From the NCBI GenBank assembly GCA_020430675.1, contig JAGQJJ010000269.1, forward strand, positions 1-6,037: a stretch of DNA of 6,037 nt. The letters run 5' to 3'. The notes under the pieces were generated by a model. That model was not told the origin of the DNA. It made no database searches and saw only the letters and a program-made list of their open reading frames with translations. Shown in pieces: positions 1 through 5,700 of the stretch (position 1 is its first letter; each line of letters starts with the position of its first letter). The translations under genes were made by a program, and so were the position numbers. This DNA comes from Myxococcales bacterium (GTDB lineage: Bacteria; Myxococcota; Bradymonadia; UBA7976; UBA1532).

Positions 1-1838
1 AGCGCTTCGCGCCCCGCGAAAGGCGCCCCGCTCACCTTGTCGTCCAGACCAATGAACGCGCCCACGCCCTCCAGGTCATCGAGGCCGTCCAGATTGTCAA
101 AGCCCTCCAGATCGCCCAGGTCATCGAGCATGGCTGGCGCGTCATCGTCCACGCCCAGCTCATCGAGCGCCTCGAACGGCCCCAGCCCATCGAGCCCTTC
201 TGGGTCTTCATCGGCGTCACCAAAGGGTTCGCCGATGGCGCCGAGCTCTTCCAGACCGTCGAGCTCCGAGAAGTCGATGTCGTCTGGCCCCAGCGAGTCG
301 GCCGCCGACCCTTCCGGATCGTCGAGGGCGTGGGGCTCGGCCAGGTCGTCAGGATCACCAAAATCGAAAGGCCCCTCGCTGTCGACCAGATCAGCCAGCG
401 CCGAGACCGCGCCAAAGTCGTCGGACTCCTCCAGCGCAGCCACCGTGGCCGCGGGCCCCGAGCCCAGGCGCTCGTCTTCGCGTGAGACGTAGACCTCCTG
501 GCTGCCCCCCGGCAGACCGGGGTAGCGGGGCGGACGCGCCGCGGCGACCGGCGGCACGGCTGGGACCGGCTCGGACAACGGCGTCTCGGCGGAAGCCCAC
601 CCGCCAAACGCCGCGTCGACCGAGTCCTCTTCGGGCACGACCGACTCATCGATCGGGTCATCGCCGCCCACCACCGGCGCCAGGCTCCAGTCCTCGCCCT
701 CAAGCGGCGGCTCAAGATCGGGCTCCAGCGCGCCGAGCACCGAGGCGTCGGCGGCCGCCGCCCGGGCGAGCGGCCCCGGTGAAGACGCCCAATCCGCATA
801 GCCGTCGTGGCCATCGTCGGCGGCGCTGGCGTCCATGGAAGGGAACGCTTCGTCGGGTTCGGTCGGCTCGGGCGGCGGGGTCAACGCCAGGGGTGGGCTG
901 CCGTCGAACAGGATGGGCGCGATCACCACGCCGGCGTGCGCGGACGGCTGATGCACCTCGGACGGCGGCCCCACCGCCTGCAGCTCGACCACGGGCAGCT
1001 CGACCGCGCGCCGCGGCGGCAACGGGCGCGGGCGACCTGGCCCCGCCGGCGCCGCCCGAGCGACATCCGTCGAGCCGGAAGGCCGCGAGCTGGCCTCGTC
1101 TCCCCGGGCGGCGCCGAAGCCATCGATCGGGCTGACGGGCGTGTCTACCGACCAGGCTTCGGGGGGCGCGCCCCAGGGGCTGTCCTGCGCGGACGGTGGC
1201 GGGGCACGGCCCAGATCGGAATCCGAGTCATCGGAGAACAACGGCGTCGGTGGCGGCAGCGGCGCCGCCGGCAGCGAGGGCTCGGTCAGCGGGGCCGGGA
1301 AGGTATCAAGCGCGTCGTCGGCGGCGCTGTCGCTGACGTCCTCCGGCTCGATGCTGCCCTCCGATGACGCCGACGGCGCTGGCGGGCGCAGGCCGGGCAG
1401 ACCGGTCATCGTGTCGCCGAACAGGTGCAGCGACCGCACGGCCGGCTGCGGGATGGTCAAGGGCGACTGTTCGAGGCCCTCGCTGACGGCCTTGAGCATG
1501 TAGTCGGTCTTCGGGGCCACCTCATCCGAGCCGCGCGGGCCCGGGAAGACGGGCACGGCGACCTCGGTGAGCGGGCCGAGCGGACCCGACGCCGCGCGAG
1601 CGCGGGCGGGCGCAGGCTCGGGCCGCGAGGGGCCCGCTCGATCGACGGCCGAATCGGCGACGGAGCCCACCGGCGACGGGTCAACCGCCGGCGGCCCCAA
1701 CGACATGGGCGCGTCGAAAGCGGTGCTGTTGAGCAGATCGAGGCGCGGGTGGTCGGGCGAGGCGCAGACCACGTCGACCAGCGGTCCCAAGGCGGGGCGC
1801 AGAGGGCGGTCCGGGCGCTCGGCCAACGCGGGCGGCAT
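1..1838 (-). CDS. Long acidic Pro/Ala/Asp-rich protein, 3' end outside window; may be the C-terminal extension of the ATPase
   Basis: An open frame of at least 612 codons from the ATG at 1838 to the left edge, with no stop. I do not recognise a catalytic domain. The first 35 residues (LAERPDRPLRPALGPLVDVV and around) resemble the last helix of MinD/FlhG-like ATPases. Most of the rest is low-complexity and probably disordered: Pro/Ala/Ser-rich at first, then increasingly acidic with Gly, Asp, Glu and Leu. A less biased island (TDYMLKAVSEGLEQSPLTIP, then VRSLHLFGDTMTGLP) lies at about 1395-1511. The final 80 residues carry a period-three hydrophobic pattern. There is no signal peptide or membrane segment, so it is presumably cytoplasmic. 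The start is uncertain: no ribosome site precedes 1838, and GTG 1772 or ATG 1706 are alternatives. The frame is chosen by its open length, its G/C third positions and the family-like N-terminus. It may be a scaffold, or an extension of the ATPase. Confidence 0.75.
   Translation of the reverse strand, partial: MPPALAERPDRPLRPALGPLVDVVCASPDHPRLDLLNSTAFDAPMSLGPPAVDPSPVGSVADSAVDRAGPSRPEPAPARARAASGPLGPLTEVAVPVFPGPRGSDEVAPKTDYMLKAVSEGLEQSPLTIPQPAVRSLHLFGDTMTGLPGLRPPAPSASSEGSIEPEDVSDSAADDALDTFPAPLTEPSLPAAPLPPPTPLFSDDSDSDLGRAPPPSAQDSPWGAPPEAWSVDTPVSPIDGFGAARGDEASSRPSGSTDVARAAPAGPGRPRPLPPRRAVELPVVELQAVGPPSEVHQPSAHAGVVIAPILFDGSPPLALTPPPEPTEPDEAFPSMDASAADDGHDGYADWASSPGPLARAAAADASVLGALEPDLEPPLEGEDWSLAPVVGGDDPIDESVVPEEDSVDAAFGGWASAETPLSEPVPAVPPVAAARPPRYPGLPGGSQEVYVSREDERLGSGPAATVAALEESDDFGAVSALADLVDSEGPFDFGDPDDLAEPHALDDPEGSAADSLGPDDIDFSELDGLEELGAIGEPFGDADEDPEGLDGLGPFEALDELGVDDDAPAMLDDLGDLEGFDNLDGLDDLEGVGAFIGLDDKVSGAPFAGREA
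39..278 (-). repeat. Acidic repeat with a hydrophobic residue every third position
   Basis: Within the acidic protein, short runs place Leu, Phe, Ile or Val at every third residue, separated by Asp, Glu, Gly or Asn pairs. Examples are FSELDGLEELGAI (about 234-272), LDGLGPFEALDELGV, and LDDLGDLEGFDNLDGLDDLE (about 69-128), a run that continues to the next hydrophobic residue. At DNA level this is an imperfect 9-base period that varies in sequence, so it looks kept at protein level. The function is unknown; such LD-rich segments often serve as binding motifs. Confidence 0.6.
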
Positions 1839-1910
1839 GCGGCGCAGGCCGGGAGGCGCCCGCTAGTCCGCCGGCAGAATGGGCAACGGCGCCGACCGGA
1901 AGCCCGGCTA
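1839..1910 (-). other. Two in-frame TAG codons interrupting the ATPase reading frame
   Basis: The TAG at 1908-1910 (codon 257 of the ATPase frame) and the TAG at 1863-1865 (codon 272) share the frame of both the ATPase and the long acidic reading frame. The 14 codons between them read PGFRSAPLPILPAD; the 8 after the second read RAPPGLRR and run straight into the ATG at 1838. All but two of these codons (ATT and CCT) end in G or C, like the flanking coding DNA. The segment aligns without gaps to the family pattern I recall after VCRR: aromatic-x-G, a Pro-x-Asp, then RR and Pro. Both TAGs are followed by C. No SD-like sequence precedes the ATG at 1838. This favours one interrupted gene over two separate ones, but does not prove it. 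Confidence 0.6.
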
Positions 1911-2678
1911 CCGCCGGCACACGACCGCCAGCGCGCCCAGCACGCGCTTTTGTTCGCGCGGCCCGGCCTGGTTGATGATCAACCGCGGCCGCATCTCGTC
2001 GATCAGCGTCTGCGCCTGATCGGCCACCTCGGCGTCCCGGGCGGCGAGGCGTTCGACCAGCTCATCGATCGAGTCGATGCGCTCGGCGCCGCGCGGCTGC
2101 ACCGCCCGCGCGAGCAGCCCTTGCACCCAGTCATGCCCGGCCAGGCCCAGCTCCAGGCGGCGGAAGACCGCGGCCTTGAGGAAGGCGTAGGCGTTCTGAA
2201 TCGAAGTGGGTTCGGGGCTCGTGACGACCAGCCGATGGCCGACCACATTGAAGAAGTCGAGCGTATTGTAATGCGTGCCGGCGCCCAGATCGATGAGCAC
2301 CGCGTCGGCGTCGAGGCGGGCCAGCGCGTCGACCAGGCGGCGCTTCTCGGCCGGCCGCGGATGCGCCGCGCGCAGGATCGCCGCCGCGCCGCTGACAAGG
2401 CGCAGGCCGGGGATGCCGGTCTCGATGCAGAAGTCGGCCAGCTCGGCGCCGCGCTGCGCAAAGAAGTCGGCGAGCGTGAAGGTGGGGTGCAGCAGCCCGA
2501 GCAGGGTGTGCAGGTTGGCCGCGCCCAGATCGGCGTCGACCACCACCACCTTTTGCCCGCGGCGCGCCAGCTCGACGGCCGCCCCGGCGCAGACCAGCGA
2601 TTTGCCGACGCCGCCCTTGCCGCCGCCAAAAGCCCAGATCGACGGCGCCCCTTGCCGCGTGCGCACCGGCCAGCTCAC
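1908..2678 (-). CDS. MinD/ParA-type (FlhG/FleN-like) P-loop ATPase, shorter than its family
   Basis: A 256-residue ATPase of the MinD/ParA/FlhG class, proteins that cycle between ATP-bound dimers and monomers to position cell-surface machines or chromosomes. Visible motifs are the deviant Walker A GGGKGGVGKS (18-27, with both signature lysines K21 and K26), the A' motif VVVVDADLGAAN (44-55), Walker B AVLIDLGAGT (126-135), and SPEPTSIQNAYAFLK (154-168), which is typical of FlhG/FleN-like members. A strand RPRLIINQA (230-238) precedes VCRR and then TAG. The family normally continues about 50-60 residues further, through a segment like [Y]xG...LGYxPxDD...RRxRP and a C-terminal helix. That segment is missing here but is encoded in the same frame beyond the stop (see the entry at 1839-1910). 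The start is GTG, overlapping the upstream TGA. Its partner or cargo is unknown; the operon suggests an envelope complex. Confidence 0.92.
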   Translation of the reverse strand: MSWPVRTRQGAPSIWAFGGGKGGVGKSLVCAGAAVELARRGQKVVVVDADLGAANLHTLLGLLHPTFTLADFFAQRGAELADFCIETGIPGLRLVSGAAAILRAAHPRPAEKRRLVDALARLDADAVLIDLGAGTHYNTLDFFNVVGHRLVVTSPEPTSIQNAYAFLKAAVFRRLELGLAGHDWVQGLLARAVQPRGAERIDSIDELVERLAARDAEVADQAQTLIDEMRPRLIINQAGPREQKRVLGALAVVCRR

Positions 2679-4141
2679 CGTCCGCTCCCGGGCGCGCCCC
2701 CGTCCGGCGACGGCGCGCTCCCCGCATCACCCACGCCGGCATCAGACGCCGCCGGGGCCGATCCGCCGTCGGGCGCGCCCTGCAGCGCCGCCTTCTGCAG
2801 CAAATGGCGGCGCAGATGGTTCAGCCGACCGTCGGCGTCCTTCTGCTTCAGATCCTCCCAAAGCGTGCGCATCAGGGTGCGGGTACGGTAGTCCTCGGTG
2901 TCATCCTGGTGCTTGACCAGCCAGGTGAGCAGCTCAGGATCATCGGTCGTGGCCAGCGCGCGCACCACCCCGAAGAGGAAGTTGCGTTGGCGCACGATCG
3001 GCATGATCGGCCCGCCTTCCTGCACCGGCAGGTTGCGCTCGGGGCACATCAGGTTCGGGTCGCGGGTGCGCTCCCAGGTCGCGCGCAGGGGCACGCTGCT
3101 CTCGAAGACCACCATCAGCTCAAGCGCGTTGACCGCCGCGCAGCGCACCACCAGCGCCGGATCTTCCAGCGCCGCGGCGATCGCCGAGAAGAGGCGCGGG
3201 TCGCGCAGTTGCCCCAGCGCCCAGACCGCGGCGAGGCGCACGTTCTCGGCATCGGCCGCCGTGGTCTGGATCTCGCGCAGCCGCTCGATGGCCGGCACGC
3301 GCAGCAGGCCGAGCATCAGCGCCAGCGCTTCAGGCTCCTTGCGCACCACGGGATCATCGACCAGGGTGCGCGCTGCGTCGCCGGCCCGGCGCTGGATGTC
3401 ATCGGCCTCTTGGTGGTGCCCGTAAAGCCCGAGCGCGATCAACGCGGTGAAGGTCAGCGCCTCGCGGGTGCGGGCCATCTCGGCCAGCGGCTCGATCGCG
3501 GCGGCCAGGCGATGCATGCCCGCCACATGCGCCGCGCGCGCGGCGACGCCCTCGTCGGCGTCGTTCAGCGCGGCGATCACCACCTTCTCCAACGCCGGCG
3601 TCACCACAAACTCGGGCCGGTCGGCGAGCATGTTCATGCCCGCGCGCCGCACCGCCGGATCGGGCGCCCGCATGTGGATCACGGCGACGCCGGGATGGGA
3701 GTAGCGCTGGATGAAACCGCCGGAGATGGCGTTGGTGACGCCGAGCAGCCCCATCGAGAAGACCATGAAATACAACCAGAAACGCACGCCCGAGCCGCGG
3801 CCCGACAACGCCAGCGCCTCTTCGTCTTCGTCGACCTCGGTCGCCGTCGCCTCGCCCGAGATGCGCGCGTCCAGCTCGGCCATCTCATCGCGCAGGATGT
3901 GTTCGGTGAACCCGCGGTAGAAGAGGTAGTCGCCGAGCGCGATCACGCTGGCCAACCCGCACAGCAGGCCCAGCGCGACCCAGAGCGCGACCAGGGCGAA
4001 GCTCAGCCCTGGCGAGCGGATCGATTCATCGATGTAGCGATGGATGCCGAGCGCGGCGCCGAAGAACGCCAGATTCGCGATGAGCAGGGTGGCCCAGCGT
4101 CGCCCGGAAGTGCCGAAGATGGCCTGACGAAGAGGTTGCAC
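2675..4141 (-). CDS. Membrane-anchored HEAT-repeat protein
   Basis: A 488-residue protein with three predicted membrane segments at about residues 16-34, 46-70 and 120-143. A charged loop (about 76-118, ending in TEVDEDEEALAL) separates the second and third. Residues about 158-450 are alpha-helical with HEAT/PBS-like repeats. The clearest runs over 299-345, with VRLAAVWALGQLRDP then LVVRCAAVNAL; others start near DPAVRRAGMNMLADRP (161) and DADEGVAARAAHVAGM. Such repeats are protein-binding scaffolds. The last 30 residues are a Gly/Ala/Ser/Asp/Pro tail. The basic N-terminus (GRRW) suggests the N-terminus is inside; three crossings would then place the HEAT domain in the periplasm (inference). 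The start is a GTG 3 bases after the preceding TGA, with only a weak ribosome site. The stop overlaps the ATPase start as GTGA. No catalytic motif is visible. It may link the outer-membrane barrels to inner-membrane or cytoplasmic parts. Confidence 0.84.
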   Translation of the reverse strand: MQPLRQAIFGTSGRRWATLLIANLAFFGAALGIHRYIDESIRSPGLSFALVALWVALGLLCGLASVIALGDYLFYRGFTEHILRDEMAELDARISGEATATEVDEDEEALALSGRGSGVRFWLYFMVFSMGLLGVTNAISGGFIQRYSHPGVAVIHMRAPDPAVRRAGMNMLADRPEFVVTPALEKVVIAALNDADEGVAARAAHVAGMHRLAAAIEPLAEMARTREALTFTALIALGLYGHHQEADDIQRRAGDAARTLVDDPVVRKEPEALALMLGLLRVPAIERLREIQTTAADAENVRLAAVWALGQLRDPRLFSAIAAALEDPALVVRCAAVNALELMVVFESSVPLRATWERTRDPNLMCPERNLPVQEGGPIMPIVRQRNFLFGVVRALATTDDPELLTWLVKHQDDTEDYRTRTLMRTLWEDLKQKDADGRLNHLRRHLLQKAALQGAPDGGSAPAASDAGVGDAGSAPSPDGGAPGSGR

Positions 4142-4144
4142 CCG

Positions 4145-4921
4145 TCAATCGCTGATGGTGGGCTCCTGCGGGAAGAAGAAGCCGAAGCCGACGGTCACCG
4201 CAAAGTTATTGCTGAACTCTGCGTTGGCCACCGTCTCGACGCCCGCTTCCCCCGACTCGGCGACCGAGTTCAGCGCGGACGAGAAGATATAGTCTCGCGC
4301 CTCGATGTTGAGCGCCATGCCGCGGGCCACGTAGGTCCGCAGGCCCAGCCCGGCCACCGCCATCGGCGTGAAGTCCTCGACGTCCTTCGAACCGGTGACC
4401 GACGAGCCGCCAGCGCCGACCAGCAGGTGCACGTCGTAGTTGACGATCGCCCGGCCGAACAGGGCGAACTTGCCGATCAGCGGGGTGTAGATCAGCTCGG
4501 CCGAGGCCAGGAGCTGCACGCTGGAGAACGAGCCGTTCTCGGCCTTTTCGGCCCGCTTGGCGGCGATCTCTTCAGCGAGCCCGGTGTCGAGCGCCGTGCC
4601 GTACATGCCGGTCACGCCGATGCCGACGGCGTCGGAGAAGTAGTAGTTGAACTGCGCGCCGAAGAGGATGTTGCGCTTGAAGGCGTCGTTGAGCGTGAAG
4701 CCGACCGTCGGCGCGGCTTCGAAGCGGCCGCCGCGCAGCAGCAGGCGATGGCGGATCGCGTCGCCCTCTTCGAGCTGTTCGAGCGCGCTGCGCCGCGGGC
4801 CCTGGATGCTCGCGGCGAAGGCATGACCGGCGACCAGGAGGCTGGCGAGCAGGGCGACGCCGGCCGCCAGACGGCCACCGCGACGGCCCCGCGTGGTGTT
4901 CGTGGTGCCCATCGTCCTCAC
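4145..4921 (-). CDS. Outer-membrane beta-barrel domain protein (second of the pair)
   Basis: A 258-residue probable outer-membrane barrel and a diverged paralogue of the gene before it. The GTG at 4921 overlaps the upstream TGA as GTGA; an ATG three codons in (4912) is an equally plausible start. The N-terminus (TTRGRRGGR, then LAAGVALLASLLVAGHAFA) is a signal peptide cleaved near residue 36. Conserved blocks match the neighbour in order: FEAAPTVGFTLNDAF, then a GIGVTGMYG strand, LIGKFALFGRAIVNYDVHLL, VAGLGLRTYVARGMALNIEA and a final FAVTVGFGFFFPQ. A charged segment around residues 115-130 (EEIAAKRAEKAENG) is probably a loop between strands. No lipobox cysteine is present, so it is not a lipoprotein. 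The two barrels are likely made together and may work as a pair. The specific role is unknown. Confidence 0.84.
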   Translation of the reverse strand: MRTMGTTNTTRGRRGGRLAAGVALLASLLVAGHAFAASIQGPRRSALEQLEEGDAIRHRLLLRGGRFEAAPTVGFTLNDAFKRNILFGAQFNYYFSDAVGIGVTGMYGTALDTGLAEEIAAKRAEKAENGSFSSVQLLASAELIYTPLIGKFALFGRAIVNYDVHLLVGAGGSSVTGSKDVEDFTPMAVAGLGLRTYVARGMALNIEARDYIFSSALNSVAESGEAGVETVANAEFSNNFAVTVGFGFFFPQEPTISD

Positions 4922-5700
4922 TTCAGCGTCCGGTACTCAAAGTCGGGCGGCAGGAAGAAGCTGACGCCCGTGGTCAACATGAGGTTGTTCACAAACTCGC
5001 TGCCAGCGGGATAGTCCTCGTTGTAGACGTTGTCCCGCAGCTCGATGTTGATGGTGAACCACCGGTTCATGAAGTAGCGCTGACCGAGGCCCGCCGAGAG
5101 CGTGGGGTGCCCCGCGAGCTCGGTCTGGGTGTACCCCGCGCCGAGCAGCGCGTAGGTGTCCCAGGGGATGATCCAGGTGTTGAAGAGCGCAAACTTGCCG
5201 TAGATGAAGGCGTATTCGAAGTTCAGCGTGGCGTACCACTTGATCTTCGAGACCTGCGGGAACAGCTCGTAATCTTCGATGACCTGATCGAAGAGATCGG
5301 TCTCGGTGCCCAGGCTGTAGCCGCCATTGGCGCCGATCGCCATGACTTCGGTGAGGTGGTAGTTGATGCTGCCGCCGGCCACGAAGGTATTGACCAGGGC
5401 GTCGTTGATGTTGGTGCCGAGGAACGGCGCCACCTCAACGCGCTGCTGCCGCAGGAAGGGTCGGCGCTGGATGACCCGGATCAGGTCGATCTCTTCCTTG
5501 CGCGACCGCTCGACCTCTTTGGCCGCGGCTTCGGTGTCGACGACATCAAAGGTCATCGAGCCTTCATCGCCCCCGTCGCCGCTGTCACCAGACAGCTCGT
5601 CGGGGCTGAAAGACATGTCCAAGTCGTCCTGCGCGTACGCTGACCCAGCGCCCGCGCACACGAGGAACATGACCAGGATCGCCCACGCTCGCCGGTTCAT
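4918..5700 (-). CDS. Outer-membrane beta-barrel domain protein (first of a tandem pair)
   Basis: A 260-residue secreted protein, probably an integral outer-membrane beta-barrel. Residues 1-23 form a signal peptide: a basic start (MNRR), a hydrophobic core, and an AYA cleavage site before QDD. Residues 24-50 are a short acidic, Gly/Ser/Asp-rich linker. A charged stretch around 58-90 containing IQRRPFLRQQRVEVAPF precedes a domain of alternating hydrophobic and aromatic strands to the C-terminus. Strand motifs include NINDALVNTF, FEYAFIYGKFALF, YALLGAGYT and FTINIELRDNVYN. The size and layout fit the myxobacterial-type 'outer membrane beta-barrel domain' family (recalled, not searched). It is the first gene of the operon and its TGA overlaps the start of the next gene by 4 bases. 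The family has no single known function; members include paralogous barrels associated with envelope complexes such as gliding machinery. Pore or scaffold activity is not shown by the sequence. Confidence 0.86.
   Translation of the reverse strand: MNRRAWAILVMFLVCAGAGSAYAQDDLDMSFSPDELSGDSGDGGDEGSMTFDVVDTEAAAKEVERSRKEEIDLIRVIQRRPFLRQQRVEVAPFLGTNINDALVNTFVAGGSINYHLTEVMAIGANGGYSLGTETDLFDQVIEDYELFPQVSKIKWYATLNFEYAFIYGKFALFNTWIIPWDTYALLGAGYTQTELAGHPTLSAGLGQRYFMNRWFTINIELRDNVYNEDYPAGSEFVNNLMLTTGVSFFLPPDFEYRTLK

What the first reader, a model, noticed from the sequence alone, without database searches (positions are those of the whole stretch)
1839..1910. One gene apparently split by two in-frame amber (TAG) codons 15 codons apart
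Seen: the frame starting at 2678 is open to the left edge (about 892 codons) except for TAG at 1908-1910 and 1863-1865. G/C-ending codons continue across the gap, and no ribosome site precedes the next ATG. Known family (from memory): FlhG/MinD-like ATPases continue after VCRR with an aromatic residue, then a Pro-x-Asp and an RR...P segment. The encoded residues fit that spacing without gaps, with the first TAG at the aromatic position and the second after the Asp of PAD. Both TAGs have C as the next base. All four other visible genes end in TGA. Inference: amber readthrough or recoding, a recent nonsense-mutated gene, or sequence error. Two independent TAGs in the same frame are hard to explain by one error.
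Basis: partly seen in the sequence, partly recalled or inferred. Interest (0 to 1): 0.72.

Follow-up and report, generated by a model that had tools for sequence, protein, structure and literature searches.

The report
ATPase gene broken beside internal repeat
In this DNA from an uncultured bacterium, a gene for a MinD-like ATPase with a long disordered tail is interrupted by two stop codons, and they sit in a short scrambled stretch that resembles DNA further along the same gene, so this looks like a locally damaged gene rather than a new way of reading the genetic code.

Summary
In detail: on the minus strand one frame runs from 2678 to the left edge (892 codons) with only two stops, TAG at 1908-1910 and 1863-1865. 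The 35 relative rows aligned all read through both sites. Recoding is not supported: no relative examined has the stops; TAG terminates a syntenic gene in close relative L002; pylS is over cut-off in 0 of 38 related genomes; RNA folding is ordinary; and conservation is lost exactly around the TAGs. That loss is confined to codons 257-280: 5.8 bits against 37-68 in 26 relatives, with both flanks in the relatives' range. New here: the stretch lies in a 113-nt direct repeat (1806-1918 and 1580-1692, 80 of 113 identical; core 46 of 59), read in different frames and not seen in five relatives. Best reading: natural local recombination or conversion scrambled the end of the ATPase, and the TAGs are real stops. 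An assembly artefact is the main rival; no second copy of this gene was found and reads were not available.

The parts
1911..2678 (-). MinD/ParA-type ATPase core, 256 codons from GTG 2678 to the first TAG
   Evidence: Pfam PF01656 and PF10609 over cut-off; 70% identical to L001 (best segment 70%)
1908..1910 (-). first in-frame TAG, codon 257, at the position that is Tyr in 31 of 35 relative rows
1863..1865 (-). second in-frame TAG, codon 272, after Pro-Ala-Asp
1839..1910 (-). scrambled stretch, codons 257-280, holding both TAGs
   Evidence: 5.8 bits against 37.2-67.6 in 26 relatives, 0 of 26 lower; sliding windows
1806..1918 (-). repeat copy A, overlapping the scrambled stretch
   Evidence: 80 of 113 identical to 1580-1692 without gaps; core 1841-1899, 46 of 59
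1580..1692 (-). repeat copy B, in the tail-coding DNA, 226 nt away and in another reading frame relative to copy A
3..1838 (-). continuation of the frame: disordered-type tail, 612 codons from ATG 1838 and cut by the window edge; the protein collection lists it as a separate 597-residue call starting at the TTG of codon 297 (1788-1790)
2675..4141 (-). HEAT-repeat protein gene directly upstream, ending in TGA at the start codon of the ATPase gene
4145..5700 (-). two related genes upstream (4145-4921 and 4918-5700), same order as in L001, L002 and L003

Best explanation
A MinD/ParA-type ATPase gene with a long disordered tail has been broken by a natural local rearrangement. A 113-nt stretch at the end of the ATPase fold and a stretch 226 nt further on in the tail-coding DNA share sequence through short ectopic gene conversion, template switching or duplication (which of these, and in which direction, is not resolved). 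Because 226 is not a multiple of three, the shared sequence is read in different frames in the two places. At copy A the result is a stretch, codons 257-280, that has lost its conserved protein sequence and holds two true TAG stops. The ribosome is expected to stop at the first TAG and give a 256-residue ATPase without the last part of its fold and without the tail; the tail frame is then untranslated or weakly started downstream. Shown: the stops, the confined loss of conservation, the repeat, the open frame in relatives. Inferred: that the event is biological, its mechanism, and the fate of the proteins.
For: Frame intact in relatives: L001, L002, L003 and L004 hold open frames of 1476, 1506, 613 and 1552 codons; 35 of 35 rows read through. 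Loss of conservation confined to codons 257-280: 5.8 bits against 37.2-67.6 (0 of 26 lower), while codons 245-256 beat 24 of 26 and codons 281-304 beat 5 of 26; 0 of 101 windows of 44 residues elsewhere (HEAT, both neighbours, ATPase core) fall below the lowest relative. Direct repeat: 46 of 59 and 80 of 113 identical; 0 of 1500 dinucleotide shuffles and 0 of 463 other window segments reach the core score; 0 of 1500 in each of three codon shuffles, extrapolated p 5e-8 to 2e-6; not seen in five relatives. Copy A is a mosaic: where the copies differ, it sides with the relatives 11 to 3 in codons 257-275 and 12 to 1 in 276-291. TAG terminates the orthologue of a neighbour gene in L002.
Against: The copies differ by 22-29%, so this is not a fresh copying event, and neither TAG is present at the matching place in copy B: both need later changes. 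Copy B is near chance to the relatives in that register, so direction is open. The stretch kept exactly the relatives' length and G/C third positions in 22 of 24 codons (chance 0.003 to 0.04 under neutral composition), which old untranslated DNA need not do. The ATPase core shows no decay (97 of 103 strongly conserved columns kept), so the event must be recent or the truncated product useful. By plain identity the loss is less striking: 6 of 11 columns against 7 of 12 to 11 of 11 in 16 relatives. One relative, P0096, has an equally deep local deficit at codons 312-323. No reads and no second copy were available.
Confidence: 0.58

Rival explanations
1. Assembly or sequencing artefact: the stretch of 70-110 nt is a wrong path or a bad consensus in a 6-kb contig, and the organism carries an intact gene.
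For: Single record, no second copy listed at 90% or more, none in viral contigs; about 75% GC here; sharp edges with normal flanks; G-C swaps are frequent in the stretch (17 of 31 first- and second-position differences in codons 257-300 against 24 of 68 in the core).
Against: Random errors would not resemble another part of the gene, and a copying artefact should be nearly identical to its source, not 71-78%. No net insertion or deletion. 101 windows elsewhere in the contig look normal.
Confidence: 0.25
2. Working gene fission: the ATPase core and the tail are two separately translated and maintained proteins, and the stretch between the first TAG and ATG 1838 (or the TTG at 1788-1790) is a drifting spacer.
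For: The most deficient segment, codons 257-278, nearly fills the gap between TAG 1908-1910 and ATG 1838. Both frames are stop-free; if the event were as old as the divergence of the copies, random change would leave the core stop-free in 131 of 400 and the tail in 20 of 400 simulations. The core is well conserved.
Against: No ribosome-binding site by eye before ATG 1838. The core would lack a segment that relatives and, weakly, the solved protein FleN share. No indel in the supposed spacer. No listed relative is split.
Confidence: 0.12
3. Amber readthrough or recoding: both TAGs are read as amino acids and one long protein is made.
For: Frame, spacing and G/C third positions continue through both TAGs, and homology resumes in the same frame.
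Against: Conservation is lost exactly where readthrough would need it. No relative examined shares a TAG there. TAG is a terminator in L002. pylS over cut-off in 0 of 38 related genomes (22 of 38 have only weak matches below it; 1 of 14 controls is over the cut-off). RNA fold z -0.67. No in-frame TAG in the complete neighbour genes. The host's own tRNAs could not be examined, since no genome is held.
Confidence: 0.03

Closest known systems
MinD/ParA-type ATPases with long disordered tails in Myxococcota-type MAGs (L001-L004, P0002 and relatives; some named flagellar biosynthesis protein FlhG by their source)
   Same: ATPase core about 60-70% identical, same upstream genes in L001-L003, acidic Leu-Asp-rich tail
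   Different: Relatives are single frames without the stops and without the 113-nt repeat
FlhG/FleN and MinD proper
   Same: Core sequence; the lost segment aligns with FleN 5j1j residues 182-257 in L001 (that stretch alone has i-Evalue 0.002)
   Different: No N-terminal DQAxxLR motif in the window's protein (by eye; motif from passages of PMC12826062); long tail instead
Gene conversion or template-switch mutation clusters (recalled; only a search listing was seen)
   Same: Clustered differences without net length change that resemble a nearby donor
   Different: Donor and recipient differ by 22-29%, so it is no fresh copy, and direction is open
Pyrrolysine-containing genes of Deltaproteobacteria (PMC8318568, passages seen)
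   Same: In-frame amber in a bacterial gene
   Different: There the amber sits in a conserved active-site region shared with homologues; here conservation is lost and no relative has it

Membership tests
MinD/ParA-type ATPase | Deviant Walker A motif and family profile | tested here: met
   GGGKGGVGKS at residues 18-27; PF01656 45.1 and PF10609 44.1 bits, over cut-offs
MinD/ParA-type ATPase | Complete fold in one open frame | tested here: not met
   Frame stops at codon 257, before the conserved end seen in 35 relative rows
FlhG | N-terminal DQAxxLR motif | tested here: not met
   Absent from the residues before the Walker motif (by eye; motif from PMC12826062)
FlhG | C-terminal membrane-targeting helix | not testable with these tools
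Recoded amber gene | Protein conservation continues through the stops in homologues | tested here: not met
   Codons 257-280 below all 26 relatives
Recoded amber gene | Amber-reading tRNA or pyl genes in the host | not testable with these tools
   No genome of the host held; in 38 relatives of L001's genome pylS is over cut-off in none; tRNAs not scanned
Disrupted gene (pseudogene) | Stops inside a frame that is open in homologues | tested here: met
Disrupted gene (pseudogene) | Loss of constraint along the whole gene | tested here: not met
   Loss confined to codons 257-280; core like the relatives
Ectopic gene conversion or template switch | Damaged stretch resembles a donor nearby beyond chance | tested here: met
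Ectopic gene conversion or template switch | Donor nearly identical and direction clear | tested here: not met
   71-78% identity; direction open

The most novel reading that the evidence does not exclude
The gene still works as one unit: the host reads both ambers, by a suppressor tRNA or tolerated readthrough, so that the MinD-like ATPase is made mostly without and sometimes with its disordered tail, the split having been created by out-of-frame exchange between an ATPase segment and a tail segment.
Probability: 0.03. Interest if true: 0.65.

Novelty: new member of a known kind. Interest (0 to 1): 0.22.

Why it matters
It shows that two in-frame ambers in one metagenome contig need not mean recoding: here they mark a short scrambled stretch that resembles another part of the same gene. 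If the event is biological, it is a case of a repeat-prone tail sharing sequence out of frame with the folded domain beside it and breaking it. It matters little beyond that and needs reads before anything is built on it.

Tried and rejected
Compensating frameshifts: a frameshift-tolerant profile alignment stays in frame 0 at penalties of 8 bits and more; the gains at 4, 5 and 6 bits are reached by 50, 63 and 62 of 120 substitution-only simulations. Small inversion: best gain 11.9 bits, reached by all 25 codon-shuffle controls. Special RNA structure: z -0.67, 48 of 200 shuffles fold as well. Copy in inverted orientation: 31 of 78 controls as high. Shared coding of both copies in the -1 frame: mismatches fall evenly on codon positions (10, 10 and 13 of 33), although 21 of 37 residues agree. 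Copy B as a clear duplicate of an intact ATPase end: its profile score in that register is ordinary, 999 of 5932 registers are higher. Three 113-nt units in tandem: the middle unit does not match (29 and 35 of 113). A second copy of the gene: none at 90% or more among the 92 hits and the best 120 of 2233 hits listed (both searches scored only the candidates sharing most words), none in viral contigs; the closest partial proteins P0097 and P0103 end before the region. Papers: four searches were seen as listings, and passages of two papers were read; nothing on this gene was seen there, and no claim is made that it is not in print.

Rows dropped before counting: my motif script took a segment from 26 loci (48 loci, L001-L048, had been fetched), and 55 relatives, proteins included, had enough aligned core. 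The 28 nearest were used, less duplicates: 27 (14 of them scored in turn), 26 (16 listed). In one search relative P0096 has a local deficit as deep as the window's (-11.0 at codons 312-323 against -10.8; its row has no residues past about codon 312); the next is -8.6. In one search 258 of 377 genomes had no match at 1e-40. In some searches internal stops were counted only in the matched core (up to residue 256); the open frames of the listed matches are 287-1552 codons long. In one search, 64 of 1245 segments from five relatives' loci match their own surroundings as well as the window's stretch does; the 12 best listed lie in tail-coding DNA of L002, L003 and L004.

Full report
What is there. 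The window is a single 6037-base record for which no genome is held. On the minus strand lie, in order, the end of an FtsY-like gene (name recalled from its motif, from no call), two related genes of outer-membrane type (my inference; no Pfam family over cut-off), a HEAT-repeat protein gene and a MinD/ParA-type ATPase gene. The order of the two related genes, HEAT and ATPase is the same in L001, L002 and L003; in L004 the HEAT gene was not found in between. The ATPase frame begins at GTG 2678 and is open for 892 codons to the left edge except for TAG at codon 257 (1908-1910) and codon 272 (1863-1865).

What relatives look like. The nearest genomes hold the gene as one open frame: 1476 codons in L001 (70% identical), 1506 in L002 (68%), 613 in L003 and 1552 in L004, no stops inside the match. 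In 35 aligned relative rows (33 distinct) codon 257 is Tyr in 31, His in one and Leu in three, and there is no gap in codons 257-281. Of 377 genomes of the phylum of L001, 119 have a match at 1e-40; no listed match has a stop in the matched core, and the open frames are 287-1552 codons long. The same holds for the 14 of 57 relatives of L002 that match. So the stops were seen only in this contig. No second copy was listed in the protein collection: the only proteins over 90% identical are the window's own two, 256 and 597 residues.

The stretch around the stops is not ordinary coding sequence. Against a profile of 26 relatives, each relative left out in turn, codons 245-256 of the window score better than 24 of 26; codons 257-280 score 5.8 bits against 37.2-67.6 (0 of 26 lower); codons 281-304 score better than 5 of 26. 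The most deficient segment is codons 257-278; one relative, P0096, has as deep a deficit elsewhere, at codons 312-323. None of 101 windows of 44 residues in the ATPase core, the HEAT gene and the two related genes falls below the lowest relative (7 to 11 relatives per gene), so the contig is not generally poor. By plain identity the contrast is smaller: 6 of 11 strongly conserved columns kept in codons 257-300, against 7 of 12 to 11 of 11 in the 16 relatives listed. At DNA level the sub-blocks of codons 257-275 are near chance or slightly above it in a larger null (0.4-3.8%); clear similarity resumes at codons 276-281. There is no net length change and no need for a frameshift. Third positions are G or C in 22 of 24 codons.

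A repeat under the stops. The stretch matches DNA 226 nt further along the same gene in the same orientation: 46 of 59 without gaps (1841-1899 against 1615-1673), extending to 80 of 113 (1806-1918 against 1580-1692). Dinucleotide shuffles reach at most 20 against 26.5 (0 of 1500), and 463 other segments of the window at most 19. Three kinds of codon shuffle reach at most 23 against 32 (0 of 1500 each; extrapolated p between 5e-8 and 2e-6). In five relatives the corresponding segment has no notable match in its own tail (24 to 184 of 300 shuffles as high). Repeats as such are common in the tails of relatives: 64 of 1245 segments score as high. The offset of 226 is 1 modulo 3, so the copies are read in different frames. 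Copy A is a mosaic: where the copies differ and L001 and L002 agree, A sides with these relatives 11 to 3 in codons 257-275 and 12 to 1 in 276-291. Copy B is near chance to the relatives in that register. Neither TAG is present at the matching place in copy B.

How it most likely arose and what it does. The simplest account is a short ectopic exchange (conversion, template switch or duplication) between the end of the ATPase fold and the tail-coding DNA, out of frame, followed by point changes. It removes the conserved end of the fold and leaves two true stops. Direction is not resolved: preserved length and the residual signal in frame 0 favour an ATPase segment partly overwritten, near-chance DNA similarity favours replacement.

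Why not recoding. Readthrough needs the protein sequence around the stops to matter, yet that is where constraint is lost. No relative examined has the stops. TAG directly follows the conserved end of the gene orthologous to 4145-4921 in L002. None of 38 genomes related to L001's has pylS over its cut-off, though 22 have weak matches and 1 of 14 controls is over it. The RNA is not unusually structured. The host's own tRNAs could not be examined.

Why an artefact remains possible. There are no reads and no second copy, the region is about 75% GC, and G-C swaps are frequent in codons 257-300 (17 of 31 first- and second-position differences against 24 of 68 in the core). Against it, random errors would not produce similarity to another part of the gene, and a copying artefact should be nearly identical to its source.

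Verdict. Observation confirmed; recoding not supported; a naturally and locally disrupted MinD-like ATPase gene is the best explanation at 0.58, artefact 0.25, working fission 0.12, readthrough 0.03.

Noticed in passing
window 4145-5700: Two tandem related genes (about 28-34% identical across loci) keep their order in L001-L004 but have no Pfam family over cut-off.
   Followed up: partly
L001 and L004, downstream of about 6900: The tails of relatives carry long repeats: Leu-Asp-rich in L001, a 17-residue-like Ala-Glu-Trp repeat in L004; the window's tail ends in the Leu-Asp type.
   Followed up: no
P0002-P0022, C-termini, beyond the window's left edge: The alignment consensus shows a conserved block at the end of the tails; three of these proteins (P0002, P0009, P0010) gave only ATPase families in Pfam.
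   Followed up: partly
window 2061-1681, minus strand: The -1 frame is open for 126 codons across the first TAG and in the repeat reads like the tail protein (21 of 37 residues).
   Followed up: yes
L006, L007, L008, L009, L017, downstream of the ATPase gene: These marine loci (SAR324, Deltaproteobacteria and an unnamed proteobacterium in their titles) share a nearly identical stretch translated as RAGNKPGSVLT..., which looks like a conserved element or a gene in another frame.
   Followed up: no
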